Source: Desulforapulum autotrophicum
GTDB taxonomy: Bacteria; Desulfobacterota; Desulfobacteria; Desulfobacterales; Desulfolunaceae
Reading direction: 5' to 3'
Assembly: GCA_020723285.1 (NCBI GenBank)
Contig: DYJE01000003.1
Location: 147,924 to 211,923, forward strand
DNA length: 64,000 bases
Both the position numbers and the translations under genes were made by a program. The first letter of the stretch is position 1; every line of letters starts with the position of its first letter. This document shows, one piece after another, positions 5,708 to 54,336 of this stretch. The notes below the pieces were generated by a model. It ran no database searches and was not told the DNA's origin. It saw only the letters and a program-made list of their open reading frames with translations.

Positions 5708-6049
5708 ATGAATATTTCACCTCTGTCGTCTGTTATAAGCGCATCCGGTTATTCAAGAGTTGAGACCGGTAAACCGTCCGGTGCGGATACTTTGGCTGAA
5801 AAGCCGGGACAAAATCATTCACTTCCTGAGGCGTCGGGCACAGAATACGTTTCTTCCGGCGACGATTTGGGGAATCTTGGTGAAATCGAGGTCGCAGTTC
5901 CTGCTGTTAACGATATGAGTATCGATGAAGGCCATTCGGCCCGTCTTGCTTCCCAAAACGGCGGTATCCCGGTGAAAATGGCGGCGTCCCTCTATGTTCT
6001 CAACCACAGCTTCGATGAACAGAAAAGCATTCTGCAACTGATCGCCTGA
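5708..6049 (+). CDS. Small hypothetical protein
   Basis: A 113-residue protein, Ser/Gly-rich and probably disordered in its first 80 residues, ending in a short amphipathic helix (MAASLYVLNHSFDEQKSILQ). The tail weakly recalls small YjfB-type motility proteins, but this is not enough to name it. No signal peptide or cysteines. The start lies downstream of an AAACTAAGG stretch. It stands alone between the operon terminator and the convergent zinc-ribbon gene. Confidence 0.5.
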   Translation: MNISPLSSVISASGYSRVETGKPSGADTLAEKPGQNHSLPEASGTEYVSSGDDLGNLGEIEVAVPAVNDMSIDEGHSARLASQNGGIPVKMAASLYVLNHSFDEQKSILQLIA

Positions 6050-6138
6050 TCCGATGCATTAAAAAAAGCAGACGAACCACACCGATGAGACTGGATATCT
6101 GCGTATGTTTTCACGTACAAGCCCCCAAAAAATGAAAA

Positions 6139-6831: not shown

Positions 6832-6879
6832 AAACGTCAATCCTGGGTGTTTCGTTGTATATCAGAGTGTGAGAGATCA

Positions 6880-7986
6880 TTATCCCGGAATGGGCGGGGG
6901 CACGCTGTCGAAAATGTCTTTCAGCTCCGGCATGTCCGCGGCTTTCACCCAGGATTCAAACCCTTTTTTCCACATCAGTGTGTCGGGTTTGATGGCTTTG
7001 TCCTTGATCATCTCATGGATGATTTTGGGAGAAAAAGGGCCTTTTTGCTCACCGCCCAGGGCCACGAAAAACGCCGTGGCCTGACCGGGAAGGGGAGGCG
7101 GGCTGTCCGGTGCGGACGGCCGGGCTGCTTCGGGCTGAAGGACTTTGCCCATCTGGTTGGCCATGGCAAAACCCATGCCCATGCCGATGCCTGCAGACGC
7201 GTCTCCGCCGGGGTTTGCCGCAGCCTTTTCCATGGCATTGGCGGACTGGAACTGGGTGTATTTGTTGAGATCTCCGATGATCCCCATGCTGCTTCGCTTG
7301 TCCAGGGCTTCTTCCACGTCCGGCGGCAGGGAGATATTTTCGATGACAAGAAGGGTGAGTTCAAGGCCGTAGGCCATGAATTCCGAGGTCAGCCGCTGGG
7401 TGATGAAACTGGACAGATCCTTGTAGTTCGACGCCAGGTCGAGGACGGGGATCCGGCTTTCGGCAAGGATGTCTGCAAAACGGCTGGAAATCATGCTCCG
7501 GAGCTGGTCAGCGATTTCATCCACGGTGAAATGGGCGTCCGTACCCACGATTTCTCGGATGAAGGTGGCGGGGTCCTTCACTTTCATGACATACGTGCCG
7601 AAGGAGCGCATGCGCACCGGACCGAATTCGGGGTCCCTCAGCATCACGGGATTTTTCGTGCCCCATTTGAGGTCCGTGAAATTTTTGGTGTTGATGAAAT
7701 AGACTTCGGCCTTGAACGGGCTGTCAAATCCGTAATACCAACCTTTGAGCGTGGTGAGGACCGGGAGGTTCTTGGTGGTCAGGGAGTACATGCCCGGCTG
7801 GAAAACGTCGGCAATGGTTCCCTGACTGACGAATACCGCCACCTGGGATTCACGGACCGTGAGTTTGGCTCCGTATTTGATTTCGTTCTGGTACCTTGGA
7901 AAACGCCAGACCATCGTATCCCTTGAATCATCGGTCCATTCGATGATGTCCACGAGTTCCGCTTTGACTTTGTCCCAAAGAGCCAT
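6880..7986 (-). CDS. SPFH-domain protein with C-terminal GYF_2-like domain
   Basis: A 368-residue protein with an N-terminal SPFH (band-7-like) domain of the YdjI / 'virion core protein' type. The text WRFPRYQNEIKYGAKLTVRESQVAVF is typical of the family. Then come a Gly/Met-rich linker (about 255-290), a Pro-rich stretch, and a C-terminal domain with FFVALGGEQKGPFS...DTLMWKKGFESWVKA that matches the GYF_2 pattern. Such proteins are thought to act as scaffolds near membranes. The ATG at 7986 is nine bases from GGAG; the TTG two codons earlier is too close. It is co-oriented with the zinc-ribbon gene and probably forms a unit with it. Confidence 0.8.
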   Translation of the reverse strand: MALWDKVKAELVDIIEWTDDSRDTMVWRFPRYQNEIKYGAKLTVRESQVAVFVSQGTIADVFQPGMYSLTTKNLPVLTTLKGWYYGFDSPFKAEVYFINTKNFTDLKWGTKNPVMLRDPEFGPVRMRSFGTYVMKVKDPATFIREIVGTDAHFTVDEIADQLRSMISSRFADILAESRIPVLDLASNYKDLSSFITQRLTSEFMAYGLELTLLVIENISLPPDVEEALDKRSSMGIIGDLNKYTQFQSANAMEKAAANPGGDASAGIGMGMGFAMANQMGKVLQPEAARPSAPDSPPPLPGQATAFFVALGGEQKGPFSPKIIHEMIKDKAIKPDTLMWKKGFESWVKAADMPELKDIFDSVPPPIPG

Positions 7987-8059
7987 GTCCAACGTCTCCT
8001 TTCTTTAAATGATAAAGGCGGCGAGATGATCAAGCCGCTGTCTCATGCGATTTTCGGAA

Positions 8060-8551
8060 TCATGCAGCACCACAGCATTTCTTGAATTTTTTTCCGCTGT
8101 TGCAGGGGCAAGGATCGTTACGGCCCACTTTGGGTTCCGACCGGACCACCTGCTGGGGTTTGATGCCCTCGCCGTCTTCGAACACCCATTCGCCGTCGTG
8201 CCGCACAAAGGTGGCCAGTTCGTGGTGGCGGGTCCTGTCGCCTTTTACGGTGTAATAGGCGATGAATTCCACGGTTCCGGTGTCGTCCGTTTCGCCGCCT
8301 TTGTCCGTTTCGATGATTTCAAGCCGGTTCCACTCGGATTTTGCGGCCCAGAGGTAGGTTTCCTTGTCGTCGTGGGACGCCTGCTTGGACGGATGAAGGG
8401 ATGATTTGATGAAATCGGTTTCGACCTTGGCGTAGGCCGAATATCTGGCGCGCATCAGTTCCAGCGCGGTTTTGGCTTTTCGTGTGTTTTTGATGATGGG
8501 TTCACAGCATTCTGCATAGGTCAGGTCAGACCCGCAGGGGCAGAGGTTCAT
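8060..8551 (-). CDS. YchJ-like SEC-C motif protein (UPF0225)
   Basis: A 163-residue protein with a cysteine-rich start ([15 protein letters not shown]) and a SEC-C zinc-binding motif at the C terminus ([17 protein letters not shown]), flanking an NTF2-like middle domain with the [14 protein letters not shown] signature of the YchJ family. The ribosome site AAGGAG lies seven bases before the ATG. Function is unknown in general; the C-terminal motif resembles the SecB/ribosome-contacting zinc motif of SecA. Confidence 0.85.
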
Positions 8552-8683
8552 TGAGTTCTCCTTATGGTCAAGAATCGATGGTTATGAAAACGTTTATTAT
8601 CACAGGTACGGTCAGGCCTCAGAACCCTCCGAGGCTCATACGGTCAGATCTTTTTATAAAGAATATGGTGGATAAAATAAACA

Positions 8684-9157
8684 TCATTTTTTTCTTTCGA
8701 GGTCGAGGAGGACCTTTTTCAATTCAAGACCGGGCCCGAACCCGGTGAGTGAACCGTTTTTACCGATGACTCGGTGGCAGGGAATGACAATGAGCAAGGG
8801 ATTTTTACCGCAGGCCATACCCACGGCCCGTGAAGCCGCAGGATTTCCGGTTTCACCAGCGATGTCCTGATAGGATCGTGTTTCACCGTAGGGTATGGCG
8901 GCCAGCCGTTCCCAGACTTTCTTTTGAAAATCCGTTCCGCCGGGATCAAGGGGCAGGTCAAAGACTTGGAGCTGGCCATCGATGTAAGCTTTGAGCTGAT
9001 CAATGTAAGGTTTCATGGATGGTTGGGACAAAAGCCAGTCTTTCGCTGCTGAAAGGTCTGATTCTTTGGACGCGAAAATCACTTCGCAAAGACCAGCGGA
9101 TGTGGCTGCCATGGCAAACCATCCCAGACGGGTTTGAATCCGGTCATAGAGTATCAT
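8684..9157 (-). CDS. ogt: Methylated-DNA-[protein]-cysteine S-methyltransferase
   Basis: A 157-residue suicide DNA-repair protein that transfers alkyl groups from O6-alkylguanine or O4-alkylthymine to itself. The acceptor is C127 in the invariant IPCHRVIG; the recognition-helix region Y(S)YQDIA...PAASRAVG precedes it. Length is typical for Ogt/MGMT without an Ada domain. Its start overlaps the end of the upstream ModE-like gene by 14 bases, so the two are probably translated together. Confidence 0.93.
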   Translation of the reverse strand: MILYDRIQTRLGWFAMAATSAGLCEVIFASKESDLSAAKDWLLSQPSMKPYIDQLKAYIDGQLQVFDLPLDPGGTDFQKKVWERLAAIPYGETRSYQDIAGETGNPAASRAVGMACGKNPLLIVIPCHRVIGKNGSLTGFGPGLELKKVLLDLERKK

Positions 9158-9557
9158 GGGGAGACTCCGGTTTTTCCAGTTCTTTGGCGAACATGTCTTC
9201 GAAGAACACGTCTGCCACGTGATTGACCTGCCCGTGCATTTTTTTGAACTCGGCCATCAGGGATAGCGCAAGATCCGTCAACTGAGAGCCTCCGCCGGAT
9301 GTCCCGCCGGTGTTGCGTAAAAGAAGGGGCGAACCCAGTCCTTCTTCCGTGGCCTTGATTTTTCCCCAAAGGCCGCGGTAACTCATCTTCAGCTCTTTGG
9401 CTGCGGCGTTAAGGGAGCCGTTTCTTTGAATGGCATCGAGCATCCGAAGGCGTCCCAGCCCGAAAATCACCTGCCCCTTTCTGTCTTCGATCCATATTTT
9501 CGATTTTATATGAAAAGGAGGGCGATCCTGGTTTTTTTCAGAATTCTCATTCGTCAT
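9144..9557 (-). CDS. ModE-like winged-helix regulator (DNA-binding domain only)
   Basis: A 137-residue protein holding a LysR-type winged helix of the ModE class: FGLGRLRMLDAIQRNGSLNAAAKELKMSYRGLW..., then the GG(T/G)SGGGSQLTD turn. There is no molybdate-binding MOP/TOBE domain, so it is the N-terminal-only form. These small proteins commonly control molybdenum or tungsten enzyme genes, and a Mo/W formate dehydrogenase lies 4 kb away, but no direct link is shown. The ATG at 9557 was chosen over an upstream TTG. Confidence 0.8.
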   Translation of the reverse strand: MTNENSEKNQDRPPFHIKSKIWIEDRKGQVIFGLGRLRMLDAIQRNGSLNAAAKELKMSYRGLWGKIKATEEGLGSPLLLRNTGGTSGGGSQLTDLALSLMAEFKKMHGQVNHVADVFFEDMFAKELEKPESPHDTL

Positions 9558-9665
9558 GATGTCATCACCGCGCAAAACTGTTTTTTTGGTTCAGATGTTA
9601 AAATGGCATCCCAATCTTGGAGTGCAATGACCCACACTATTCCACGATTGAGGATGTTTCTCAAG

Positions 9666-9693
9666 AAAAAAGACCCCGTGCAACGACGGGGTC
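9666..9693 (-). terminator. Terminator downstream of the aldehyde dehydrogenase gene
   Basis: GACCCCGT and ACGGGGTC form a perfect eight-pair stem with a six-base loop. On the minus strand it is followed by six T (AAAAAA on the plus strand at 9666-9671). It lies 27 bases past the dehydrogenase stop codon. Confidence 0.8.
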
Positions 9694-9719
9694 AGGAAGG
9701 GCGACGGTGAGAAAAGAGA

Positions 9720-11309
9720 TCAGCGTTTCAGCATCCGGGGGAAAATTTTCATCAGCTTGAAACTGCCCGAGATTCGTTGTGAAAGGGTGTTTCCGTAAAA
9801 GAAATAACAGGCTCCTTTGATTCCCTCGTAAATGGTTTTGCTGAAGGGATGCCACCAGATGTTTTTCCGGGCGACAATGGCGTAAAGGTCGTGAACCACC
9901 ACTTTGGGGAACGTCATTTCATCGAAACCCAGTGCGCCGTGAGTCCGCCCGCCTCCTGTTTCCTTGGGGCCGCCCCAGGGAGTTTCAGCCAGGCCGTGAC
10001 TCATGAGGTGGTCGTTGATGGTGGCCACACCCACCTTGATCTGTTTTGCCAGGGCTTCTGCCTGTTTAAGGTTCTTTGACCATACCGAGCAGGTGAGACC
10101 CAGACTGGAGTCGTTGGCCAGAGCCACGGCTTCTTCCATGGTTTTGACTTTCATGACACCCACCACCGGTCCGAAGGTTTCATCGTTCATCACCAGCATG
10201 TCGTGGTTGACATTGGTCAGAACCATGGGAACCGAGAAAAAGGGACTTTCATTGTGAACAGGGGCTTTGGCTTTGGCGTAAATGACGGCACCTTTGGCAA
10301 GGGCATCATCCACATGGCGTTTCACGGTATCGACCTGGCGGAGCGTGGTCATGCATCCGATGTCGGTGTTATAGTCCGTGTCATATCCCACCCGCAGACT
10401 TTCTGTTTTGTCTTTCAATATGGACAGGAAAGAACTGTAGACGTTTTCATGAACATAGATGCGCTCCACGCCGCCACAGGACTGACCGGCATTCTGGAAT
10501 CCGGCCCAGACAGCACCGGACGCAGCCCGGTAAAGATCGGCGTCTTCGCAGACCAGCATGGCGTCGTTGCCTCCCAGCTCAAGGCAGACCGGGGTCAATG
10601 TTTTGGCGGCTGCTTCGCTCAACTGCTTGCCCACTCCAACGGAACCGGTGAAAAACAGTTTGTCGATGCGATTGCTTAAAAGGGTTTTCGAAGCCTCGGA
10701 CCCTCTCATATTGGCATAGGAAAACACACCATCGGGAAGTCCGGCAGCATCCATGCAACGCTTCAACGCAAGCCCTGCCATCTGTGTCTCCGTGGCCGCT
10801 TTCAGAACCACACAGTTTCCGGCAAGAAGGGCCATGACCACTTCCGAAAACGGAATGGAAAAGGGGTAGTTCCAAGGTGAGATGATTCCCACCACACCGT
10901 AGGGCATCCGGGTGATTTTGCTGATTTTGTTGATGAACAGAAGGCCGCCGGGCATGAGATAACGGTCTTTTAAAAACGATTTTGCTTTTTTACAATAATA
11001 CGTGAGAGCGGCCACGGCGGGGAGAATTTCCGAGGCTAAGGCGTCTGTACGGGTTTTTCCATTATCGCGAGCCACTGTTTCCGCCAGGGAATCCATGTTG
11101 TTCACCATGTATTCTTTGGTTTTTTTCAGCATGGCGATTTTCTGTTTCATGGGGAGGGCTGCCCAGTCCGCCTGGACTTCTTTCGCTTTTTCGATAAGCC
11201 TGGCCACTTCCTCGGCGGAGTGGATGTCCGAATACCCGATCACTTCGCCCGTTCCTGGGTTGACGCATTCCGTGCGCTCGATTCTCATGGCAGATTCCGA
11301 TTGGTACAT
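9720..11309 (-). CDS. Aldehyde dehydrogenase, NAD(P)-dependent
   Basis: A 529-residue member of the aldehyde dehydrogenase superfamily. Catalytic landmarks are SPWNYPF (near 144-150), the FTGS cofactor loop (220-223), Glu244 in LELGGND and Cys278 in NAGQSCGG. The C terminus is about 40 residues longer than the core enzyme and carries an aromatic, basic segment (KNIWWHPFSKTIYEGIKGACYFF) that may associate with the membrane as in class 3 fatty-aldehyde enzymes; that is inference. AAGGATC precedes the ATG. It is divergent from the oxidoreductase gene at 11679, and the shared intergenic region carries a perfect palindrome. Confidence 0.88.
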   Translation of the reverse strand: MYQSESAMRIERTECVNPGTGEVIGYSDIHSAEEVARLIEKAKEVQADWAALPMKQKIAMLKKTKEYMVNNMDSLAETVARDNGKTRTDALASEILPAVAALTYYCKKAKSFLKDRYLMPGGLLFINKISKITRMPYGVVGIISPWNYPFSIPFSEVVMALLAGNCVVLKAATETQMAGLALKRCMDAAGLPDGVFSYANMRGSEASKTLLSNRIDKLFFTGSVGVGKQLSEAAAKTLTPVCLELGGNDAMLVCEDADLYRAASGAVWAGFQNAGQSCGGVERIYVHENVYSSFLSILKDKTESLRVGYDTDYNTDIGCMTTLRQVDTVKRHVDDALAKGAVIYAKAKAPVHNESPFFSVPMVLTNVNHDMLVMNDETFGPVVGVMKVKTMEEAVALANDSSLGLTCSVWSKNLKQAEALAKQIKVGVATINDHLMSHGLAETPWGGPKETGGGRTHGALGFDEMTFPKVVVHDLYAIVARKNIWWHPFSKTIYEGIKGACYFFYGNTLSQRISGSFKLMKIFPRMLKR

Positions 11310-41221: not shown

Positions 41222-41250
41222 AAAGACCCGAAGGAATCCTTCAGGTCTTT
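41222..41250. terminator. Bidirectional terminator
   Basis: AAAGACC-GAAGG and CCTTC-GGTCTTT pair (one C-A mismatch) around AAT, with A-run on the left and T on the right. It separates the membrane-protein gene from the convergent Exb-type operon. Confidence 0.8.
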
Positions 41251-41269: not shown

Positions 41270-42787
41270 CTATCGACCGGACGCGCATCCCCTTCCCACA
41301 TGGACTTTGTCCTGCTTTGTTTCGGTCATGGCAACCAAGGTGTCTTTTTTTGTTTCTGCATCTTTCTTTATCGGAGGTTCTTCATGGATGATGGAAGCGT
41401 CTGTTTCGGCTTCATTGCCTTTCCCGAACATTTTTCTGTTGGCCTGTACCGCGTCAAGAATGTCCTGATAAAATATAAGTTCATGATTGTACACGTTGAC
41501 TTTGGTGATGCTTTTATCGATGGATCTTTTTTTGCAATCTTCACCTTTGTAGCAGGGCACGAGTTCCACGAGGCCTAAGAATTTTCCCTGTTCGAAAAGA
41601 CGGTAAACACCGTATCTCAGCATGCTTCCAATTTTCAGGTTTTCAGAGGAACCCATTTCGTAATCGAGCATCATTCTTTTTTTGGCGTCTTTTCCCGCTG
41701 TGGCCATGATATCTCCATCGTCATTCAGAAGATCTGTTTTGACCAGATTCAATCCTTTGCCGATGAGGGTTTGATTTTTCACATTTTTTATTTCATCACT
41801 TTTCAACCGTTTGAAGTCGGTAACTGCAAATCCCTTGAAGACACAGAGACGTTCAAGGTTGACTGTTTTGTTGTCGGCGGCAACAGAGCCCAGAATGGTT
41901 TTGTCTTTAAGATCGAGATCGTACCCACCCTTGATAATGGGGAATTTATATGTCTGGATATACTGGTTTTTCTCAATAGAAACAGGTTCGGTTTTTCTGG
42001 ACAGATTTTTATAGTTTCGTCTGTTGAAAAAATTGATGATTTCACTGAAATGAATGGTGCTGTTGTTATTCTGGTCAAGGCCTGTGAACGCTTCTCGATA
42101 ATAACTGAAATAGGCTTTGTTGAAAGAGCTTTCTTTGTCGTAATCGGGGATTCTTAAGTAAGCGTTGATGTACTGGACATCGGAAGGGAAGAAGTATTTT
42201 GTACGGATTGAAAGAAACGTCAGGTTTCCGCTGACCAGCCTGAACAGGTTTTTAAGTTCGGCTGTGAGGGGAAAGTCTTTCATGCGTCCTTCGATGTCTA
42301 TGAGTTTGATGCTGAAGTTCTGTGAAAAGATGTTTTTGTTCTGAAGAAGATCATAGCTCATGGCAAAGTCGCCCGTTTTCATATAAGAATAGGCAAGCAT
42401 CTGATATATCTGGAGTTCAAGGCTGTTTGAAAAAGTGGCACCGTTTTCATCCATGTTGCCTGAGGTATTTTTAAACGTGATGAATTCTTCGAAAAGAGCA
42501 TCCAGCTGACCTTCAAAGTGCTTGAGTTCCTTGGTGTACCGGTCGATTTCTTCTCTCGGAACAGCGCGGTCTTCCTGCATGCTTGCCCAAAATTTCGGAT
42601 AATCCCTGCGGATGAAAAGCTCTATCCCCTCAAGAAAGATCCGGCAGTCGTCATAGATACTCTGGAGGTAGGACGATTTCAATTCCTGCATGGTGTCTTC
42701 TTTTTCAGCGGAATGGAAGGCTGAGGGTGTGAAGATGGTGATCAGGAAAACAATAACGATAAGCACATGGCACCGATTCTGAGTCAT
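41270..42787 (-). CDS. Exported protein of unknown function, last gene of the Exb-type operon
   Basis: A 505-residue protein with an N-terminal signal or anchor (VLIVIVFLITIFTPSAFHSA). The middle is mixed helical and beta and has an EF-hand-like loop DQNNNSTIHFSE near residue 235. C-terminal part is Lys/Glu-rich and disordered, ending HVGRGCASGR. No enzyme motif. AAGGGGA precedes the ATG. It is the sixth same-strand gene of the motor operon and, from its position, should be a partner of the preceding exported proteins. Confidence 0.6.
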   Translation of the reverse strand: MTQNRCHVLIVIVFLITIFTPSAFHSAEKEDTMQELKSSYLQSIYDDCRIFLEGIELFIRRDYPKFWASMQEDRAVPREEIDRYTKELKHFEGQLDALFEEFITFKNTSGNMDENGATFSNSLELQIYQMLAYSYMKTGDFAMSYDLLQNKNIFSQNFSIKLIDIEGRMKDFPLTAELKNLFRLVSGNLTFLSIRTKYFFPSDVQYINAYLRIPDYDKESSFNKAYFSYYREAFTGLDQNNNSTIHFSEIINFFNRRNYKNLSRKTEPVSIEKNQYIQTYKFPIIKGGYDLDLKDKTILGSVAADNKTVNLERLCVFKGFAVTDFKRLKSDEIKNVKNQTLIGKGLNLVKTDLLNDDGDIMATAGKDAKKRMMLDYEMGSSENLKIGSMLRYGVYRLFEQGKFLGLVELVPCYKGEDCKKRSIDKSITKVNVYNHELIFYQDILDAVQANRKMFGKGNEAETDASIIHEEPPIKKDAETKKDTLVAMTETKQDKVHVGRGCASGR

Positions 42788-42828
42788 ATATTGAGAATCC
42801 CCTTTTAGCCTGAGAAGATAAGGCGGTT

Positions 42829-44580
42829 TTATTTTTTGTTATCCTGGTATCGTTTCAGTATAAGCGGTGCGCTGAATTCCTTTGGAATGACGGCATCCGG
42901 ACTGGTCTGGTATTTTTTTTGAAACTCCGTGAACAGCTTCAAGTACGTTTCGGCACCGGGTAATTTATAGAAATTCATCCAACCGTTTGGATCTGATCCG
43001 AAAGAAAGCGCCGTTTTTTCACATGGGACCATGAACGCCCGTTTAGCGTGGTACATGGCCAGTGATTCAAGGCCTTCTTTTCTCGAATAGAACATGGCAA
43101 GAGCACTGTGGATCAACGATGCATATTCCCAGTAGTTCGTGTCTTTGGATATAAGAAGCGGAGTCAGTGTCTCTGCAATATCCCGGTATTGATCTGAATT
43201 CCTGTCAAGGCCTGATCTTCTTTTTTTGTCGAGGATATTAGCAAGTAAATAAGCCATAGTCAAACGTGAAGAGTTTTTGATACTGGTTCCGGTCGGGTTT
43301 TCATTTTCCTGGATACGCATGGACAGCTGACCGTATTCGTAGAGGACATCTTCCATCAGCCTGAGATTGTCAATGCCGATGCCGAAGAGAATCAGCTCGT
43401 TGTATATAAGACTCCTGAAAGGAATGTTGTAAGTCACGAGTCTGGCTGAGTCATCGTAAAATTTTCTGTACAGTTCGAACAGTTCGTTTTTTGGGAGTGA
43501 AAAATTAAGATTACGAGTGGCCACAAATCCCCGTCTTGCAAGATAAAGATGGACAATGAACCGGGTGTTGTTGGAGTCTTTCGTGGCCTCATTGCTGTAA
43601 TATTCATAGAAATTCGGCTGACCCGCGCCAGTTGCCTTTTGAAGATCAGCAAGACGGTTCAGAAGCGTCCGGGTCTGGGAATCCAGTAAAGGATCTTTAA
43701 CATCGGAATTTCTCAGATATCTGCCAAAGAAATGATACCTCAGGTATAATTCGTAAAGTGTGAAAAGTTGCTTGGAGGAGGGGGTGTAAACACCGCTACC
43801 ACGATTGGTTTTAAATCGGTTTTTCCACAACGTGTCAAGCCAGTTCCAGGTTTTCTTGTCATAAAGATTTGAAAGTTCATCGGACTGGGTTGTGTCGCCC
43901 CATTCGCCGGCCAGTTTTTCACATTCCAGCATCATGGCGAGAAAATACACATTCAGATAAAAATCCGGAGAGTTTCTGAACTTAAAACTGACGTCATCGG
44001 TGTTTTTAAGAAGGGTTCTGCCCTGGACGATCATGTCCGGACCGCCTTTGGACGACCCGATCAGTGATTTAAGATAATGTTCCGACAGAAAGAGATACTG
44101 TTCAAGCTCCTTGTCGTGTATGGGGATTTCATCGTCCATGGTGAATTTGCCGGAACGGGTCAGGCCGTATTTTTCATGGAGGTAATGAAGATACAGAAGA
44201 AAATATTCATAGGCCATGTCGAACTTGATCCGCTGGGCCTCTTCACCGTCCTGGGTTGTTTCGTTCTTCTTGGTCAAACGTTCGATATTAGAGACGATGC
44301 TTTTGACATCATCCATAGGAAGCAGCTGACTTTGCTCTGGGATATAGGACAGCATGTCCAGATGTTTGCTGTCCGCTTTTCCCTGGATCGATGTTTTCCT
44401 TTTTTCCGAGACAGCTTCGCCGGGAGATTTGGCAGACGCCGTGAGTTTGACTGAATGAAGCAGATAAATGCTTTTGGCGTGTTTCTTGAAATCATCGATG
44501 TATCCGCCGAAAGAAACCGAACTGACGAACATCAGGATGAATCCTTGAAACAAAAGGGTTTTTAACGTACTGCGAATCAT
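42829..44580 (-). CDS. Exported alpha-helical protein of unknown function
   Basis: A 583-residue protein with an N-terminal hydrophobic signal (TLKTLLFQGFILMFVSSVSFG). The rest is almost all alpha-helical, with aromatic-rich paired-helix units (FDMAYEYFLLYLHYLHEKY, NVYFLAMMLECEKLAG, ELYLRYHFFGRYLRN) like a TPR/SEL1 scaffold. It starts in the preceding stop codon (ATGA), so it is translationally coupled to the 732-residue gene. No family recognised; a periplasmic scaffold role is inference. Confidence 0.6.
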   Translation of the reverse strand: MIRSTLKTLLFQGFILMFVSSVSFGGYIDDFKKHAKSIYLLHSVKLTASAKSPGEAVSEKRKTSIQGKADSKHLDMLSYIPEQSQLLPMDDVKSIVSNIERLTKKNETTQDGEEAQRIKFDMAYEYFLLYLHYLHEKYGLTRSGKFTMDDEIPIHDKELEQYLFLSEHYLKSLIGSSKGGPDMIVQGRTLLKNTDDVSFKFRNSPDFYLNVYFLAMMLECEKLAGEWGDTTQSDELSNLYDKKTWNWLDTLWKNRFKTNRGSGVYTPSSKQLFTLYELYLRYHFFGRYLRNSDVKDPLLDSQTRTLLNRLADLQKATGAGQPNFYEYYSNEATKDSNNTRFIVHLYLARRGFVATRNLNFSLPKNELFELYRKFYDDSARLVTYNIPFRSLIYNELILFGIGIDNLRLMEDVLYEYGQLSMRIQENENPTGTSIKNSSRLTMAYLLANILDKKRRSGLDRNSDQYRDIAETLTPLLISKDTNYWEYASLIHSALAMFYSRKEGLESLAMYHAKRAFMVPCEKTALSFGSDPNGWMNFYKLPGAETYLKLFTEFQKKYQTSPDAVIPKEFSAPLILKRYQDNKK

Positions 44581-46775
44581 AACAAAAATCCTTCAGGGTT
44601 TCTTAAATCCTGCAATCTGTTGTACAGCTCGATATCTTCGCCAGGAAGAAGGAGCCAGATTTTTTTACCGAGTTTAAGGGCGATATCCTGGTAAAATTCG
44701 AACTGGCGTTCGAAATCATCGATTTCAGTACAGTTGTTGCTGAGTGCGCCAGGGATGCTTCCCTGAATGTAACCTGCGGAAGCTGCGGCGTTGACATAGT
44801 AGTTCCTGGCGAGCTTGTAACTTCGTTCAGCGACCTGGAGTGCTCTGACCTGGAGCTGCTTGTTCGACAGATAGGAGTTTGCGATGATTCTGTAAATATC
44901 GTATCGGTCATCTTCGGTATGGTTAACCAGTGAACCCAGGCGGTATGTATCATTCATGATGAAGCTTTCAAGCTCTTCTTCATATTTGATGATTTCGCTG
45001 ATCTTGCCCTGGGATGAAAGCTCCTTAAACAGAAGATCGTAAGCGTTCAGAAGGTTTTCATGGTTGATACGCCTGCCTGTTTCGTTCAGAAAGGCCGCTT
45101 TGAAATCCATCAAACAGTTTTTTCTTGAGTTGGCCAGGGGAAAACGAACCGCTGAAATATTCTTTTCATAAAGACCGAACTGGAGATACTCAAAGTAATA
45201 GTTGATCTCACCCCGGTATCTGAAAAAAATATGGTTGATGCTTGTGGCGTTCTGGTCGTTTCCATAACCCTGAATCGGTCCGAACATTTTTTCGAGATCG
45301 GAAAAGACAAGTGTTATTTTTTCAAGGGCTTCGGCGTATATTCTGTTGATATTCGTATTGAACAGTTCGTTACGCTTTTTAACGGGATACGTGTCCCATG
45401 TCCTTGCGTATTGCTTGAGTTCTTCAAGGGGTTTTCTGCATCCGTAAAGATTATAGAAAATCCATCCGGAGGGACAAACCTCCAGTTCATCCAGGAGATC
45501 CTTGTATTTGAGGCGATCCTCCACCTTGATTCCGTGTTCCACCTGCTTTCTCAGCCACGTTTTTAGGGCGGACATGGCCACAATGTCCACTTCCCGATTG
45601 TCAAGTTTCAGTGTTTCAAGTGTGTCATTGAAAAGTTTGTCCACGTTGAATTGAAGATTCTCCCCACTGGCCGAACTGCCCTGGCTCGTAAAGAGCATAA
45701 GGGGAAGTAGCGCCCGATGCGCCATGGTCTGATCTACCCAGGTTTCCCTGATGTCATGGGCGATGACCTGGGCGCTGATGGAAAGGGGAAGATTGGCTCT
45801 GAACCAGGGGTAGCTTGACAGGGCATTGTGGGTATTGATGCCCGAAAAATACCGGATGCTTTCATTTAATCCGGCACGATCCTCTTTGGTGAAAATCCGT
45901 TCGTAAGGAGAATCGATGACTTTACTGCTTTTGATCCTGAACTCATCAAGTTCAGCGCAGACTTTAACGGTCGTGTCGAACGTCAGAATGTCTTCTTTGG
46001 TGAAAGGGGGTTCGGCGTCAGGTTTTTTATTCATGAAATCGATGGCCTGTGTGATGCGCTTGATCAGGCCGTCCTGGGATACCAGAAGATAATAATACAG
46101 TGATTTGTAATAGTATTCTTCAGCGATGAACAGATTGCGATTCGGATAGAAACCGTTTTCAAAATACCGTTTGAATCGTGCGCTCTGCTTGTCCTTATGG
46201 ACCGTGCACAACTCGAAGTAGATGAAGTTGTAACCGGTAAGGTTTTGTTTGTCATCGAAATAGATGTTGCTGAACTCTTTGTTCGGATCTTCACTGTATG
46301 TATAGAGGGATGCCTGGGCTTCCCGAGCCCTGATCAGATCGAGTTTACCATCGGGGTAAATACCCAGATTTTTTTCAAGAGATGAAAAGAAAGTGTTCAA
46401 TTCCCCGTCGCTTAATTTATCTTTGACATACAGTTTGCCGATGTCGGCAATCCAGGCAGAAGGGGGCGGTGTTTCTTCAGCTGTCGTATGTGTGGATAAA
46501 GTCTTGACAGATGGGAGTGAATCCGTTGCAGGTGCTTCAGTTTTTATCGACGGTGATTCAGGTTTTGGTGATGCAGAAGGAGCGGGTTTTATTTCAGCGG
46601 CAGGTTCCGACAAACGGTTTTTTCGTCCGGGATCCGCTTTCTTCCATGTGCCTGTGGGTGAGTGACGTTCGGACTGGAGCTCCTCGCTGGTAAGGGGGGT
46701 CAGAGCAGAACTCTGAATGGCTACGGTCATGACAACCAACCACAGACAGGAAAAAAAGATGATGGGACATTTCAT
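44577..46775 (-). CDS. Large exported protein of unknown function
   Basis: A 732-residue protein with a signal peptide (MKCPIIFFSCLWLVVMTVAIQSSA), a Pro/Ser/Lys-rich disordered stretch (about 30-115) and a long helical domain with repeated Tyr-rich helices (NLFIAEEYYYKSLYYYLLV, IRYFSGINTHN, YEYLQFGLYEK). The start region (NNNT...) overlaps the following gene by four bases at its end. The low-complexity tether suits a protein reaching across the periplasm. No recognised catalytic motif. Confidence 0.6.
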   Translation of the reverse strand: MKCPIIFFSCLWLVVMTVAIQSSALTPLTSEELQSERHSPTGTWKKADPGRKNRLSEPAAEIKPAPSASPKPESPSIKTEAPATDSLPSVKTLSTHTTAEETPPPSAWIADIGKLYVKDKLSDGELNTFFSSLEKNLGIYPDGKLDLIRAREAQASLYTYSEDPNKEFSNIYFDDKQNLTGYNFIYFELCTVHKDKQSARFKRYFENGFYPNRNLFIAEEYYYKSLYYYLLVSQDGLIKRITQAIDFMNKKPDAEPPFTKEDILTFDTTVKVCAELDEFRIKSSKVIDSPYERIFTKEDRAGLNESIRYFSGINTHNALSSYPWFRANLPLSISAQVIAHDIRETWVDQTMAHRALLPLMLFTSQGSSASGENLQFNVDKLFNDTLETLKLDNREVDIVAMSALKTWLRKQVEHGIKVEDRLKYKDLLDELEVCPSGWIFYNLYGCRKPLEELKQYARTWDTYPVKKRNELFNTNINRIYAEALEKITLVFSDLEKMFGPIQGYGNDQNATSINHIFFRYRGEINYYFEYLQFGLYEKNISAVRFPLANSRKNCLMDFKAAFLNETGRRINHENLLNAYDLLFKELSSQGKISEIIKYEEELESFIMNDTYRLGSLVNHTEDDRYDIYRIIANSYLSNKQLQVRALQVAERSYKLARNYYVNAAASAGYIQGSIPGALSNNCTEIDDFERQFEFYQDIALKLGKKIWLLLPGEDIELYNRLQDLRNPEGFLL

Positions 46776-46787
46776 TCGTCTATACCT

Positions 46788-47957
46788 CTACCTTATTTTG
46801 CGTTCAAGGGCTGAAACCACATCAAAAGGAGCGTCCACCGGAGAAAAATCAATGATAACTTTTTTGGATCCCGATTCTTCTTCTATGGTCAGAGTGCACG
46901 TGTAGCCTTTGACTTTATAGATGTATGGGCTGTTGGCGCGGCTCAATTTACGTGCTTTCTTCATGATGTCCTGTTTGAGGATCTTGACTCGGTCTGAGCT
47001 CCCCAGTGCTTTACTGTTAATGACAATTTCTTCCACGGCCTCTGCGTCTTGAGGGGCGATATGACGGATGGGGGGCGGCGTTGATGTCACAGAGATGCTT
47101 TTTGGGGGAATAGGCGCTGACACAGATGAAGACCCTGGAATGGTTGAAACTCTGCCACCACGAACAGGCGGTCGAGCGCTTTCCCACTGGGTCAGCTCAG
47201 GTTTTGGTCCACGTCCGGCGGCAATACCGCTGGAGGGCGGTAAAGCTGTCATACGGTCTCCCGGTGTATCGGCTGAAACATTCCGTTTGATTTCCGGCAT
47301 GGCGTTGAAAGTCGACCCACTTGTGACAGAACGGTTTGCAGGTGCAGGTGATGCCGTGGGCAGAGGGCCTGTTTTGGGCACCATGGACGGAGCAAGCCTG
47401 TTGGGGGCTGGAAGTTGGCGTGATGGTATGTCACGGGGCTCAAGTGGTTTGGCTGTCAATTCTCTGGGTATGATGGTTTTATCATGCAGGGTTTTGGGCA
47501 ATGGTTGAGCTGCTTCAATGGGTTTTGCCTCAATTCTGTTTTCAAGGGGTTTTAGAGCTTCGATTTTTTTTTCCGGAAGCGGCTCAGCGATGGTTTTTTC
47601 AACAGGTTTCGGCTCTTCCGGTTTTTCATGGATCAGTTTTTCAAGTTCGACTTTTTTAGTTTCGACAGATTTTTTTGCTGCGTTTTTCAGAACTTTGAGC
47701 AACGGAAGAGATTTTGGCACTGTGGGTTCAGGAACACGCTCCGTGTGTGGGAGAATTACCGTGGTCCGGGTGATTTTGTAAAGATTTTTATCCAGAAGGG
47801 TTCGATTGACAATAAATATCACGATAACCGAGACGATAAAAATCAACAGGGAGGGATTGACGAACCACTCTTTTCGTCGGGTTCTGGAATAAACCCGTGG
47901 CATGATGATTTTATATGGACCACGTCCGTAATGATTGAAGCCTGGCGATACCGTCAT
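46788..47957 (-). CDS. TonB-like inner-membrane protein
   Basis: A 389-residue protein with TonB architecture: a short cytoplasmic start, one transmembrane helix (LLIFIVSVIVIFIVN), a long Pro/Lys/Glu-rich periplasmic rod (about 70-300) and a small C-terminal alpha/beta domain (YIYKVKGYTCTLTIEEESGSKKVIIDF). The end is not a textbook TonB fold, so it may be a variant. It starts inside the ExbD-like stop codon (ATGA). It would pass motor force to outer-membrane or periplasmic partners; the following exported genes are its likely partners. Confidence 0.75.
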   Translation of the reverse strand: MTVSPGFNHYGRGPYKIIMPRVYSRTRRKEWFVNPSLLIFIVSVIVIFIVNRTLLDKNLYKITRTTVILPHTERVPEPTVPKSLPLLKVLKNAAKKSVETKKVELEKLIHEKPEEPKPVEKTIAEPLPEKKIEALKPLENRIEAKPIEAAQPLPKTLHDKTIIPRELTAKPLEPRDIPSRQLPAPNRLAPSMVPKTGPLPTASPAPANRSVTSGSTFNAMPEIKRNVSADTPGDRMTALPPSSGIAAGRGPKPELTQWESARPPVRGGRVSTIPGSSSVSAPIPPKSISVTSTPPPIRHIAPQDAEAVEEIVINSKALGSSDRVKILKQDIMKKARKLSRANSPYIYKVKGYTCTLTIEEESGSKKVIIDFSPVDAPFDVVSALERKIR

Positions 47958-48421
47958 TTTTGATTCACACCGCCTGAATGCTGGATGGTGATCCGGTTAG
48001 CGTCTTCGTAGATGCTTTCAATGACGGACATGGCCATCAGAGTATCTTTACTCAGGGAAAATGTGTCAGGGACGAGAATCGGTCGCTGACTTCCTTCCTG
48101 TTTAAGAACGGTCAGTTTGTTGCTGAGGTCCTGTGCGGAGAGCAGGGTGGGGTCGACAGTTTCTTTGGTACCCTGGATGAAAACGACCTGGTAGGGGTTT
48201 GTTTCAGGGATGGTGGGCTTGAGCACCCGGATCTGGTAAGACTGATAACCTTGCTCAATGGATGAGACCTGCTTGTTTTTGACAACTTTGGGGACAGTCA
48301 TTTCACCGATGTTGACCGGTTTCTTTCCAACTGTCGATGTCTGAGTGAATGCGATGAGCAGGAGAAACGCCAGGTCAGCAAAAGAAAACAGCCAAATTCT
48401 TGAATCTTCACCGTGTTTCAT
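47954..48421 (-). CDS. ExbD/TolR-like protein
   Basis: A 155-residue inner-membrane protein: one N-terminal helix FSFADLAFLLLIAFTQT with the Asp at the place of the proton-carrying Asp of ExbD (D25 in E. coli), then a periplasmic domain with ILVPDTFSLSKDTLM. The next gene starts within its stop codon. Membership of the ExbD family is inferred from architecture and that Asp rather than strong sequence likeness. Confidence 0.75.
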   Translation of the reverse strand: MKHGEDSRIWLFSFADLAFLLLIAFTQTSTVGKKPVNIGEMTVPKVVKNKQVSSIEQGYQSYQIRVLKPTIPETNPYQVVFIQGTKETVDPTLLSAQDLSNKLTVLKQEGSQRPILVPDTFSLSKDTLMAMSVIESIYEDANRITIQHSGGVNQK

Positions 48422-48464
48422 ATCTTATATGGTCCCGTGTGTGCGTGTGTTTGAAAATGAATCA

Positions 48465-49046
48465 CTAAAACAGCCTGGATGCCATCCCCAATGCTTTGTC
48501 GATTCGAGCTTCTGACAAGGTGATCAGATTTTTTTTGATCACTTCGAAAATGATAAATGTAGCCATGGTAATCAGCGTCGTGAACAGTGCAACGCCAAGG
48601 CCCTGGGTGTTAAGGGCGCTGTTGGGATCTTCATTTGCGAGAAATATCATGATCATCCCGAATACGGTGCCGAAAAGACCCGTGGGTGGAAGGATGTTGG
48701 TGATCATGGTGATCCGGTTGATGTATTTATGGTGAAAAACATTTTCGATGAGCTGGAATGTTGCATCTGCAAGAAATGTTTTAGGATAATTATTCCCCTG
48801 ATGTTGAATGTGTGCGGAGTAATATGTTTTAGCGGTCAGAACCATCAACGGATCGTCGGTCATGCTTTCCTTCTTGGTTTCAGCCCGGATGACATCGAAG
48901 CTGACAGCGCGGATATGTCTGTAAGCTTGAAAGCACATCCATGTGGCATGGGCGAACAAAATGGCAATTCCTGTGAACACACATCCGTGGATCATGGTTT
49001 TGATAAGATCCGGATACATTCTGAACATATAAACCAAAAAATCCAT
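48465..49046 (-). CDS. ExbB/TolQ/MotA-like proton channel protein
   Basis: A 193-residue protein with three transmembrane helices (TMIHGCVFTGIAILFA, NILPPTGLFGTVFGMIMIFLA, GLGVALFTTLITMATFIIFEV). The middle reads like the TolQ/ExbB core: LPPTGLFGTVFGMI, and ALFTTL corresponds to the conserved TALxTTxxGL part. It should form a proton-driven motor with the ExbD-like product. It is the first gene of a six-gene operon ending at 41270. Ion specificity is unknown. Confidence 0.85.
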   Translation of the reverse strand: MDFLVYMFRMYPDLIKTMIHGCVFTGIAILFAHATWMCFQAYRHIRAVSFDVIRAETKKESMTDDPLMVLTAKTYYSAHIQHQGNNYPKTFLADATFQLIENVFHHKYINRITMITNILPPTGLFGTVFGMIMIFLANEDPNSALNTQGLGVALFTTLITMATFIIFEVIKKNLITLSEARIDKALGMASRLF

Positions 49047-49540
49047 ATCAGTCCTTATTTAATCAGCAAAGTTTCAAAACTTGACCCTGAAACATGCAAC
49101 ACATCTGAAAGAGTTGTGGTTTCGGTCGGGTGTTCAATTGTTTGATTTGTACTATCCATTATGTCGATCTTTGCGTGATGTCAATAGTATTCTGCTTGAA
49201 CAGCCCGAAAATACAGACATGTCAAAGGTTTTTCAGGAGGGTATTTTATTTGAAATCACATGGACGTAAACTGTGGAGTTTAAATGTAAAAAAAGAATCA
49301 TAAGATGATATCGCAATGTACTTGCTAAAGGTATGGGATGTTATTTATGAAGAACGATCCAATGTGTCAAAGAGCATGATTGTAACCCAATGGATGAATG
49401 AAATGGATGTCATTCAATAACTCTTTGTAATAAATTAACATACGTGTATTGTTGTTTATTTGTGAAGCTGTTTTAAGCTTTTAATGAGATGAATGGTAAA
49501 GGTGGGTCAGGAGAAGAGATGCAGGTGTTGAAAAATAAGA
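49047..49540. other. Upstream region of the Exb-type operon
   Basis: About 490 AT-rich bases without a supportable gene. It presumably carries the operon promoter on the minus strand; I could not place one with confidence. Confidence 0.5.
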
Positions 49541-49567
49541 AAGGGTACAGACAGAAACTGTACCCTT
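49541..49567 (-). terminator. Terminator after tRNA-Arg
   Basis: AAGGGTACAG and CTGTACCCTT form a perfect 10-pair stem. On the minus strand it follows the tRNA and is trailed by TTCTTATTTTT; on the plus strand it is also followed by TTTTT. Confidence 0.85.
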
Positions 49568-49577
49568 TTTATTTTTA

Positions 49578-51664: not shown

Positions 51665-51741
51665 CGGGATGTGGCTCAGTCTGGTAGAGCACAGCGTTCG
51701 GGACGCTGGGGTCGGAGGTTCGAATCCTCTCATCCCGACCA
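51665..51741 (+). tRNA. tRNA-Pro (anticodon CGG)
   Basis: A 77-base cloverleaf with encoded CCA. The anticodon loop is TTCGGGA in the stem CAGCG/CGCTG; the acceptor stem is CGGGATG / CATCCCG; the T loop is GGTTCGAATCC. An integrase gene follows within 81 bases, so its 3' end is probably the attachment site of the adjoining element. Confidence 0.97.
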
Positions 51742-51821
51742 AATAAACCCCATAGTTTCAATCAGTTAATAAAATTTCCATACTCAAAACCGATGTGTAA
51801 ATGATGTGTAGTTTGAAAAGA

Positions 51822-52982
51822 CTACACATCTCCGGTTTTTTTCTTTTTTAGTGGAACGATGCGGGCTTTTTTTTGAGTCATAGCGGCCGTTACAGTTTTA
51901 AGATTGTCGATGCCGTCTACCTCGCAGTAACGCTTAAAAGCCTTGTTTGTCAGTCCTGAAGCTGCAAGGGCTTTTTCTTCGCCTAATATCCTGGCTGTCT
52001 CTGTTGCGGTTGTATGTTTTGTGCCCGCATACAAACCAACACCTTCAATGCCCAGCTCTTTACAAGCTTTAGTCCAATACTTCCGGAGCAAATTGATTCC
52101 GAAAACCTGGTTTGCATCAGATTTTCGAAGATCGCCACGGTGTCTGAAAAACGGCATCGTCGGGAAAGCCGGATACTCGTTCTTGAACCTGATGAACTCT
52201 TCAATATGCTCCGGCATCAAACGTATTGTCTTGAACTTGTTCCGGCGCTTCGTCGGATTATGGATGATCAGAATTCCGTTTTCATCAACGCTGTTTTCCA
52301 AAATCCTTCGGATATCGTCCGGGCGCAATGCGGTGTATGTCGCAAGGAGCTCACAGGCAAAACCGATTTTTTCATTGGATTGATCTGCCAGCTCATGAAC
52401 CTTTTCAATGATCATCGATTGGGTTTCCCAATCTGTGATCGTTCGACGACCAAGTTCAAAATCGATCTTTGGGAAAACAGGTATGTCCATGATGACCCCG
52501 CGTTGTTTTACCCATTTGAAAAAGTCATGAAGCTGAGAGATATAATTTGAACGGGTCTTGTCGCTCAATCCTTTCAATGAAAAGGCAAAGTCGTCAATAT
52601 CTGCACCGCTGATATGCTTGACGTTAATATTCGCAAAATAATCAACGGCTCGTTTCATATATACGACTATGTGTGAGAAAGAGCGCTTCCCTTCTTTCCG
52701 TGTCAGATATGTTCCAACGAGGTTTTTGAATCCGTTCGGTTCTTCCCGCTTATAGTCTTCAGGATCGAAAGACCCTTCGTCCTTTTTATATCTGACCCCG
52801 TTTAAAAATCTTACCGCTTCATCGTAAGATGTGAAGTTTTTATAAAGCTTTTCAAATCTCACCACAAACCGTGTTGCCGCATGCCCGTGATCCGGACAAA
52901 AACAACCTCTTTTTCGTTCGTTATGCCAAAGTGTGCCCTTGCATACAGGGCATTTTTGGCGTGTATGAATACCACCAGCCAT
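51822..52982 (-). CDS. Tyrosine recombinase (integrase) with N-terminal zinc ribbon
   Basis: A 386-residue tyrosine integrase. The N terminus has a zinc-ribbon pair (CPVCKG...CFCPDH), followed by a SAM-like core-binding domain and the catalytic domain with the Arg motif TALRPDDIRRIL, a Lys/beta hairpin and TKHTTATETARILGE, then the C-terminal nucleophile region FKRYCEVDG. The HxxR box is degenerate here (HTTA). The ATG at 52982 has AGGAGG ten bases upstream. It points at tRNA-Pro, the presumed attB, as usual. Confidence 0.88.
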   Translation of the reverse strand: MAGGIHTRQKCPVCKGTLWHNERKRGCFCPDHGHAATRFVVRFEKLYKNFTSYDEAVRFLNGVRYKKDEGSFDPEDYKREEPNGFKNLVGTYLTRKEGKRSFSHIVVYMKRAVDYFANINVKHISGADIDDFAFSLKGLSDKTRSNYISQLHDFFKWVKQRGVIMDIPVFPKIDFELGRRTITDWETQSMIIEKVHELADQSNEKIGFACELLATYTALRPDDIRRILENSVDENGILIIHNPTKRRNKFKTIRLMPEHIEEFIRFKNEYPAFPTMPFFRHRGDLRKSDANQVFGINLLRKYWTKACKELGIEGVGLYAGTKHTTATETARILGEEKALAASGLTNKAFKRYCEVDGIDNLKTVTAAMTQKKARIVPLKKKKTGDV

Positions 52983-53073
52983 ACATAAACCACCTCCTTT
53001 CTGAATAAAATCATTTCGGATGGTAAAATATGTGGTTGATGGTTTCAACATTTTTAAATTTTCTAATCCGCTA

Positions 53074-54336
53074 TTATTTCAGTAAAGCAAGGCAAAGCGC
53101 GGCGGCAGTCTGTACCGGAACCGCGTTCCCGATCTGTTTGATTTTTTCCGATTTGGTCCCGCAGAAATGATAGTCCGCAGGAAAGCTCTGGGCCGCCGCC
53201 AGTTCGTGAGGCTGAAGCATCCGGTAGCGGATGTCCAGGGCGCAATGATCGAGCGACGGCGAAACGATCCCGAACCGGTCCCGGGTGGTGATGGTGTCGA
53301 TGGGTTTGTCGATGGACAGGGTGTTATTCCCGGTGCCGTAATATTTGACGATGAAGGGTTCGATCAGGGCGTCCGCTCCACGGGTGGTCACGGTGGACAT
53401 GGGCTTCGAGACCGGCCGGACATAAAGCTGACCGGCCCGCCCGGCCTGCTGGGGCAGGATGAACGGTTCACAAAGGGCGATATGCTGGCCCGAGGCTGTG
53501 ATCGTGGGAAGGGGCAGGGCGGTGGACCGGCTTTTCGAGGTGCCGTAAAGCATCACCAGGAAGGGCTCGGCCTTTTTCCCACCGAAGGTTTTCAGGCCGT
53601 GGACGATCCGGTCCATGGATCTCTGGGCCAGGGGCCTTTTACGGCTGAAGATGCTTTCCCCCTTAATGCTCCAGTCGATGATGGATTTTGCGGGGATCCA
53701 TTTCCGGGTCTCGCCGAACAGATCCGGGCCGCCCTGTTCGGAATGGGTATGTTCCGGCCAGACAATGCGGCGGTTTCCCCTTCGGCAGAGCATGAAAAAC
53801 CGGGTCCGGCAGGTGGGGTCCCCGTAATCGGCGGTATTCACGGTTCGCCAGGAACACCGGTAGCCCAAAGACTCCAGCGCGCCGACAAAGGCCCGGAACG
53901 TTTGTCCCCTCTTTGAAATCATGGGCTTGCCGTTGGCTCCCAACGGCCCCCAGGACATGAACTCCGGGACATTCTCGATGAGGATGTTCTCGATATAAAG
54001 GGCCTCGGCCCAGCGCACGATATGCCAGCCGGATGAACGGGACTGGTCGGAACAGGGAACCCCGCCTCGGGCATTTGAAAAGTGGGTGCATTCGGGGGAA
54101 GCCGTAAGGAGCCGGACCCGCCTGTCCGGGAACAGCTTCCGGGGGTCGATGTTGTGGAGGTTCTCGCACAGGTGCCGGGCCTCCGGGTGGTTTTTGGAAT
54201 GGGTCTCGATGGCCACGTCCCAGTGGTTGATGGCCGTGAGGGATACGTCAAGGCCCATGGACCGGGCTGCGGTCAAAAGTCCGGTGCTGGTTCCGCCCGC
54301 CCCGCAGAAAAGATCGATGGCCTGGATGGTTTTCAT
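53074..54336 (-). CDS. DNA (cytosine-5) methyltransferase, phage type
   Basis: A 420-residue C5 methyltransferase that transfers a methyl group from S-adenosylmethionine. Motif I DLFCGAGG, the catalytic Cys83 in ASPECTHFS, ENVP near 118, the QRxR-like CRTRFF and the C-terminal IGNAVP are visible. No restriction enzyme gene is next to it, so it is probably orphan, protecting the element's DNA or altering expression. It is preceded by the zinc-finger gene at 54340 (three bases apart). Confidence 0.92.
   Translation of the reverse strand: MKTIQAIDLFCGAGGTSTGLLTAARSMGLDVSLTAINHWDVAIETHSKNHPEARHLCENLHNIDPRKLFPDRRVRLLTASPECTHFSNARGGVPCSDQSRSSGWHIVRWAEALYIENILIENVPEFMSWGPLGANGKPMISKRGQTFRAFVGALESLGYRCSWRTVNTADYGDPTCRTRFFMLCRRGNRRIVWPEHTHSEQGGPDLFGETRKWIPAKSIIDWSIKGESIFSRKRPLAQRSMDRIVHGLKTFGGKKAEPFLVMLYGTSKSRSTALPLPTITASGQHIALCEPFILPQQAGRAGQLYVRPVSKPMSTVTTRGADALIEPFIVKYYGTGNNTLSIDKPIDTITTRDRFGIVSPSLDHCALDIRYRMLQPHELAAAQSFPADYHFCGTKSEKIKQIGNAVPVQTAAALCLALLK

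What the first reader, a model, noticed from the sequence alone, without database searches (positions are those of the whole stretch)
41270..49046. Six-gene operon: ExbB/TolQ-like channel, ExbD/TolR-like, TonB-like and three unknown exported proteins
Seen: three genes form a recognisable proton motor and rod. The following three encode long exported proteins of 732, 583 and 505 residues that I cannot assign; four of the five junctions are ATGA overlaps or very short. Known: Exb- and Tol-type motors drive import, envelope upkeep and motility. Inference: this motor powers a new envelope machine whose outer parts are the three unknown proteins. Best candidate for an undescribed system in the window.
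Basis: partly seen in the sequence, partly recalled or inferred. Interest (0 to 1): 0.75.

Follow-up and report, generated by a model that had tools for sequence, protein, structure and literature searches.

The report
Undescribed proton-driven cell-envelope motor operon
A six-gene operon in a sulfate-reducing bacterium encodes a small proton-powered motor plus three exported partner proteins, and it belongs to an apparently unnoticed family of such motors in related bacteria that probably works on the cell wall or outer membrane.

Summary
The operon is real (minus strand, 41270-49046). All six genes recur in one order in 9 of 9 other genomes that matched the 732-aa protein (10 of 194 genomes searched, own included). 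Genes 1 and 2 are a proton channel and rod. Genes 3-6 match no known family.

The rod profile revealed a wider family: channel, rod, transducer and a long exported protein recur in 23 further loci, many with contigs of Geobacter/Pelobacter type (names recalled). The 33 channels form one group apart from TolQ, ExbB and MotA (99/99; 91/86 with more outside rows). The host has a separate tol-pal operon. Pore threonines are kept in 33 of 33, but the known motor-transducer contact is lost: no Ser in the channel, and SxxxH in 0 of 33 transducer membrane helices (20 of 30 TonB/TolA controls have it). Instead a YGxG-type motif sits near the transducer N terminus (strict 24 of 33; 0 of 30 controls).

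In Geobacter-type loci an AMIN-bearing gene lies beside the motor in 9 of 10, once fused to the long protein. I read this as a third Tol/Ton-like force machine at peptidoglycan or outer membrane. Motor and lineage are well supported; the task is inferred.

The parts
48465..49046 (-). Gene 1, proton channel subunit (MotA_ExbB family, 193 aa)
   Evidence: PF01618 E 2.2e-9; TolQ T145, T178 and P138 equivalents kept in 33 of 33 family channels
47954..48421 (-). Gene 2, rod subunit (ExbD/TolR family, 155 aa)
   Evidence: PF02472 E 1.3e-5; Asp16 invariant in A6 and kept in all 33 family rods, strict motif in 30
46788..47957 (-). Gene 3, presumed force transducer: N-terminal YGxG-type motif, one membrane helix, proline-rich stretch, small C-terminal domain (389 aa)
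44577..46775 (-). Gene 4, long exported protein predicted all-helical (732 aa)
   Evidence: alignment; no family; model pLDDT 70.8, pTM 0.44
42829..44580 (-). Gene 5, exported protein of unknown family (583 aa); one relative carries a C-terminal Cds6_C NTF2-like domain
41270..42787 (-). Gene 6, exported protein with helical N-terminal domain and strand-rich second half (505 aa)
   Evidence: model pLDDT 71.0, pTM 0.65; possible relation of its N-terminal domain to the small upstream gene of sister loci
41222..41250 (-). Terminator-like hairpin after gene 6 (13 pairs, then a T-run)
   Evidence: consensus scan; 14 found, 8.9 expected by shuffling
49540..49568 (-). Terminator-like hairpin after the tRNA-Arg, upstream of the operon

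Best explanation
The operon encodes a proton-driven inner-membrane motor of the Exb/Tol superfamily that belongs to a lineage of its own, with its own transducer and exported partners: a third force-transducing envelope machine beside Ton and Tol-Pal. Protons pass between the gene 1 ring and the aspartate of the gene 2 rods (residue conservation shown, activity inferred). Gene 3, anchored beside the channel and spanning the periplasm with its proline-rich stretch, carries the force outward (inferred from layout and position). It engages the motor through something other than the Ser-His contact of TonB/TolA, possibly its conserved N-terminal YGxG motif (loss of the contact shown, the replacement inferred). 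The load is genes 4-6, exported proteins that tie the motor to peptidoglycan or to an outer-membrane partner (inferred, mainly from sister loci).
For: Six genes in one order in 9 of 9 other genomes. Channel-rod-transducer-long exported protein in 23 of 23 distant loci (the transducer by profile in 14, otherwise by position and motif). One channel group, 99/99 with 9 outside rows, 91/86 with 23. Pore Thr and Pro kept in 33 of 33; rod Asp kept in 33. TolQ Ser28 position never Ser in 33 (Ser in 5 of 5 outside channels), in any of four registers; SxxxH in 0 of 33 transducer helices against 20 of 30 TonB/TolA controls; strict YGxG in 24 of 33 against 0 of 30, loose form 33 of 33 against 2 of 30. 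Separate tol-pal in the host and in 4 of 4 other carriers looked at. AMIN-bearing gene adjacent in 9 of 10 Geobacter-type loci and fused to the long protein in L088. One gene 5 relative fused to Cds6_C.
Against: No AMIN gene beside the six-gene operon: the host's three AMIN matches lie on other contigs. Genes 4 and 5 are not detectably related to the long proteins of the sister loci, so their role need not be the same. Gene 3's C-terminal domain has no demonstrable kinship with TonB_C or TolA. The structure models are middling and match nothing specific. Ten of 30 TonB/TolA controls also lack SxxxH by my pattern, and the Trp that goes with the Ser is also absent from 3 of 5 outside channels, so loss of the contact is not unique. 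No expression or functional data.
Confidence: 0.6

Rival explanations
1. It is a diverged relative of the AglRQS-Glt core complex of myxobacterial gliding: TolQ-like channel, TolR-like rods, a membrane TonB-like protein and three exported proteins. That core occurs as one cluster of unknown function in some non-gliding bacteria, Geobacter included.
For: Same plan: motor, transducer, exported proteins in one cluster (PMC3169522, passages and section 7). Both occur in Geobacter relatives.
Against: One rod gene here, two TolR-like genes (AglQ, AglS) there (their TolR likeness is recalled). Gene 3 has no FHA or TonB_C domain, which GltG has. No NCBIfam model named for gliding proteins matched. Glt sequences were not on hand, so homology was not tested.
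Confidence: 0.17
2. It is an aberrant Tol-Pal or TonB-ExbBD system doing the usual job.
For: Layout channel-rod-transducer followed by exported proteins; same superfamily.
Against: Host has its own tol-pal and TonB_C proteins elsewhere. No TolB, Pal or receptor in the operon. Separate channel lineage. Docking contact lost.
Confidence: 0.08
3. It energises surface-protein export, display or adhesion.
For: In two Geomonas-like genomes a 2.7-2.8 thousand-residue protein follows the motor operon; the one scanned (L089) is cadherin/Ig-like with RTX repeats.
Against: Seen in only two loci, related to each other; no such gene beside the window's operon.
Confidence: 0.08
4. It is a Zorya-like defence motor.
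For: Gene 1 touches three ZorA models (best E 7e-4).
Against: Genes 2-6 match no PADLOC model at E 1. The exported genes do not fit cytoplasmic effectors (Zorya's plan is recalled). The ZorA match covers only the stretch common to such channels.
Confidence: 0.02

Closest known systems
Tol-Pal (TolQRA, TolB, Pal, CpoB)
   Same: Channel and rod of the same superfamily; transducer of similar layout; exported proteins encoded downstream
   Different: Separate channel lineage; no Ser-His docking contact; no TolB or Pal; host has the true tol-pal elsewhere
AglRQS-Glt core complex (PMC3169522)
   Same: Motor, membrane TonB-like protein and several exported proteins in one cluster; job outside gliding bacteria unknown
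   Different: One rod gene instead of two; no FHA or TonB_C in gene 3; sequence kinship not tested
TonB-ExbBD
   Same: Channel, rod and one-helix proline-rich transducer
   Different: No TonB_C match, no receptor, no SxxxH
vWA force transducers beside TolQR-like motors (PMC12204202, section 8)
   Same: Uncharacterised motor clusters with a TPR gene and a transducer of TonB/TolA layout
   Different: No vWA match in gene 3; one of those two families keeps the SHLS motif

Membership tests
Exb/Tol/Mot proton-motor superfamily | MotA_ExbB channel with conserved pore threonines | tested here: met
   Thr at both aligned positions in 33 of 33 (residue numbers recalled)
Exb/Tol/Mot proton-motor superfamily | Rod with one N-terminal helix and a proton-binding Asp | tested here: met
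   PF02472; one helix; Asp kept in 33 of 33
Exb/Tol/Mot proton-motor superfamily | Proton-driven movement | not testable with these tools
   needs experiment
Tol-Pal | TolB, Pal and CpoB in the operon | tested here: not met
   no such family among genes 3-6; the host's tol-pal lies elsewhere
Tol-Pal / TonB-ExbBD | Transducer with the Ser-x3-His contact in its membrane helix | tested here: not met
   0 of 33 family proteins, 20 of 30 controls; channel Ser also absent
TonB-ExbBD | TonB_C domain at the C terminus | tested here: inconclusive
   no Pfam match and no profile match, but the fold of the domain was not predicted
AglRQS-Glt core complex | Two TolR-like rod genes | tested here: not met
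   one rod in the window's operon; one rod hit per locus in the 23 distant loci
AglRQS-Glt core complex | Homologues of GltC, GltD, GltE, GltG | not tested
   sequences not on hand; NCBIfam gave no match; the GltE model is unselective
Zorya | ZorB and effectors ZorC/D/E | tested here: not met
   genes 2-6 have no PADLOC match at E 1

The most novel reading that the evidence does not exclude
A third class of trans-envelope force machine, separate from Ton and Tol, in which the transducer engages the motor not by the Ser-His membrane contact but through its conserved N-terminal YGxG motif on the cytoplasmic side, and pulls on peptidoglycan-bound helical proteins and an outer-membrane partner that are exchanged from lineage to lineage while the coupling end stays fixed.
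Probability: 0.35. Interest if true: 0.82.

Novelty: new variant of a known kind. Interest (0 to 1): 0.66.

Why it matters
Few proton-driven envelope motors are known (flagellar, Ton, Tol, gliding, type IX, Zorya; recalled). A further lineage that keeps the pore but has lost the Ser-His contact on both partners would test what force transduction strictly needs. In the Geobacter-type genome G470 it is one of only two MotA_ExbB matches at E 0.001; there and in G742 the channel scores 21.6 and 20.9 bits, below Pfam's cut-off of 22.9, which may be why it has gone unnoticed.

Tried and rejected
Family scans of the six proteins (Pfam, NCBIfam, PADLOC) and of each member of the gene 3, 4, 5 and 6 alignments (Pfam) gave no shared family for genes 3-6. 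BofC_C touched 4 of 10 gene 4 members (best E 3.5e-4; which four is not shown); three members scanned singly (L020-L022) showed nothing at E 0.01. I dropped it without refuting it. A peptidoglycan-binding look of the gene 4 N terminus was a hunch by eye; no such family is in the list. The EF-hand match of gene 6 (E 0.041) is below cut-off.

PDB sequence searches with six profiles: nothing useful for genes 3-6, weak MotA/PomA/TolQ hits for gene 1 (best E 0.02), chance hits for gene 2. Foldseek against the PDB: no match at E 0.001 for the gene 6 or gene 4 model. VIA-align best Z 8.7 (rmsd 4.4, 125 aligned; rows span model residues 23-187) for gene 6 and 10.7 (rmsd 5.5, 261 aligned) for gene 4; by the tool's note such values are usual for helical repeats. 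The strand-rich half of gene 6 was barely tested.

hhalign found no kinship among genes 4, 5 and 6, nor between them and the sister long proteins e1 and e2. TolA III looked similar to gene 3 by eye; hhalign gave probability 1.7%. The GltE model matched 58 of 58 genomes, none over cut-off: uninformative. The rod was not found on plasmids. The second tree holds one badly extracted outside row (L163) and long branches; the six-gene lineage itself is not a firm branch in the first tree (one group in 24% of bootstrap trees).

Papers: searches of the open PMC library (no preprints held) showed no description of this operon in their listings; one search failed. PMC12204202: passages and section 8. 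PMC3169522: passages and section 7. PMC12505986, PMC12215075, PMC10653833: passages. Others: listings only.

Rows left out or changed: L026 is missing from A4 but present in A8. L099 is not in the e1 alignment (contig end). For L088 and L094 an ORF replaced the automatic gene 3 pick; the L094 ORF seems out of frame at its end. L185-L190 came after the tree and residue counts and are in neither. The AMIN gene is confirmed by Pfam in three loci (L041, L086, L088) and by BLAST in the other six.
Full report
What is there. Six minus-strand genes stand at the stated coordinates with the stated lengths. Junctions are 43 nt, -4, 12, -4 and 41 nt. A terminator-like hairpin follows gene 6 (41250-41222); another follows the tRNA-Arg upstream of the operon (49568-49540). 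Genes 1 and 2 are a MotA_ExbB channel and an ExbD rod; genes 3-6 match nothing convincing in Pfam, NCBIfam or PADLOC.

Conservation of the six genes. With gene 4, 10 of 194 genomes of the order match, the own genome included. In all nine others the six genes stand in the same order and direction (gene 3 of L026 by position). Gene 4 identity is 42-67% over the aligned parts. Flanking genes are shared within the Desulfoluna-like group (L020-L024) and between L026 and L027, but not across these groups. So the operon is inherited as a unit. Eight named contigs carry it: Desulfoluna limicola, D. spongiiphila, D. butyratoxydans and five MAGs. It is patchy: the gene 4 profile found only the own genome among 395 drawn from the phylum.

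A wider family. The rod profile reached further: 4 of 297 genomes of the phylum, 34 of 277 in the class of G470 (13 of 82 genera) and 16 of 379 in the own class (11 of 145 genera). I read 23 distant loci (L041-L043, L083-L102). In all 23 a channel, a rod and a relative of the long exported protein e1 are found by search (in L099 e1 is cut by the contig end). Between rod and e1 stands a gene 3-like protein: by profile in 14 loci (three of which are in the profile), otherwise by position and N-terminal motif. Five more such loci (L185-L189) occur in the own class; L190 is a further six-gene-type contig that ends before gene 6 and has gene 4 in two ORFs.

One motor lineage. A tree of 33 family channels and 9 outside channels (host TolQ, ExbB and MotA types, E. 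coli TolQ) sets the family apart with 99/99. With 14 more outside channels the support is 91/86. Branches are long, and AglR was not available. The channel profile gives three distant family channels 130-152 bits and the best other channel of the host 33 bits.

A changed coupling site. The equivalents of TolQ Thr145, Thr178 and Pro138 are kept in 33 of 33 (the Thr numbers are recalled). TolQ Ser28, which with Trp32 meets the Ser-His pair of TolA (PMC12215075, passages), is Phe in 32 and Ile in 1, while all 5 outside channels in that alignment have Ser. Registers shifted by -1, +1 and +2 give no Ser either. The Trp is not kept as aligned; three of the five outside channels lack it too. Ser-x3-His occurs in 0 of 33 family transducer helices against 20 of 30 TonB/TolA controls. 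YGxG within the first 80 residues occurs in 24 of 33 against 0 of 30; a loose form in 33 of 33 against 2 of 30. The loss on both partners argues that this docking contact is not used. What replaces it is inference.

Not the housekeeping Tol system. The host has tolQRAB-pal-cpoB on another contig; E. coli TolQ, TolR, TolB, Pal and CpoB match its proteins (E 2e-12 to 1e-44). Four of four other carriers looked at (G147, G470, G742, G677) have TolQ, TolR, TolB, Pal and CpoB; TolA was found by similarity only in G147.

The accessory proteins. Gene 4 is predicted all-helical (pLDDT 70.8, pTM 0.44), gene 6 helical then strand-rich (71.0, 0.65); neither has a telling structural neighbour. In 22 of 23 distant loci a small exported or lipoprotein gene, about 180 aa, precedes the channel; in L042 the contig starts there. 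Its profile and that of the gene 6 N-terminal domain pick each other out: the only 4 hits (E up to 1) among 692 ORFs of nine six-gene loci are gene 6, and the top 5 of 944 ORFs of the distant loci are the small gene. hhalign gives probability 59%, E 9.3e-5, over 92 columns, against under 1% for genes 4 and 5. Single HMM E-values are weak (0.025-1.9) and both look TPR-like, so this is suggestive only.

Clues to the load. In the Geobacter-type branch (10 loci) a gene with an AMIN-like part lies beside the operon in 9, upstream, downstream or divergent; the tenth is a 5-kb contig. Pfam confirms beta-barrel plus AMIN in L041 and L086, and AMIN fused to e1 in L088 (E 4.9e-7). AMIN domains bind peptidoglycan (PMC10653833, passages). 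One gene 5 relative (L025) ends in Cds6_C (E 5.1e-11), a domain I recall from Csd6-type cell-wall enzymes. Against this, the host's three AMIN matches lie on other contigs. So the clues point to peptidoglycan and outer membrane without proving it for this operon.

Judgement. Shown: a conserved operon, an intact pore signature, a separate lineage, a missing docking contact. Inferred: proton flow, force transfer by gene 3, periplasmic place and anchoring role of genes 4-6. The closest described plan is the AglRQS-Glt core complex, itself of unknown function outside gliding bacteria (PMC3169522). PMC12204202 remarks on the diversity of such motor-driven systems still to be discovered (section 8); this looks like one. 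The searches listed under Tried and rejected showed no paper on it.

Noticed in passing
window 51665-54336: tRNA-Pro followed by a 409-aa integrase-like ORF and a 420-aa cytosine-methyltransferase-like ORF on the minus strand (named by eye): perhaps an integrated element.
   Followed up: no
L089 7236-15695; L090 2525-10585: In two Geomonas-like genomes a 2.7-2.8 thousand-residue protein follows the motor operon; the L089 copy is cadherin/Ig-like with RTX repeats.
   Followed up: partly
L041 3769-4966; L043 5407-6617; L101 295-1396: queE- and queD-like genes (named by eye) lie near the motor operon in three loci; PMC12204202 notes queEC genes often syntenic with tol-pal.
   Followed up: partly
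L185 11724-19318: Here the motor operon lies between two e1-type proteins, one before the small upstream gene and one after gene 3.
   Followed up: no
L100 8364-11914: A run of four short lipoprotein-like genes, LpoB/LPP20-like by eye, downstream of the motor operon.
   Followed up: no
L190 1800-3854: Gene 4 is split over two ORFs in this contig, a broken gene or a sequencing error.
   Followed up: no
L046 (G000:C37) 3331-9941: Another host motor locus: an ExbB-like channel in a 600-aa ORF next to a 1603-aa ORF.
   Followed up: no
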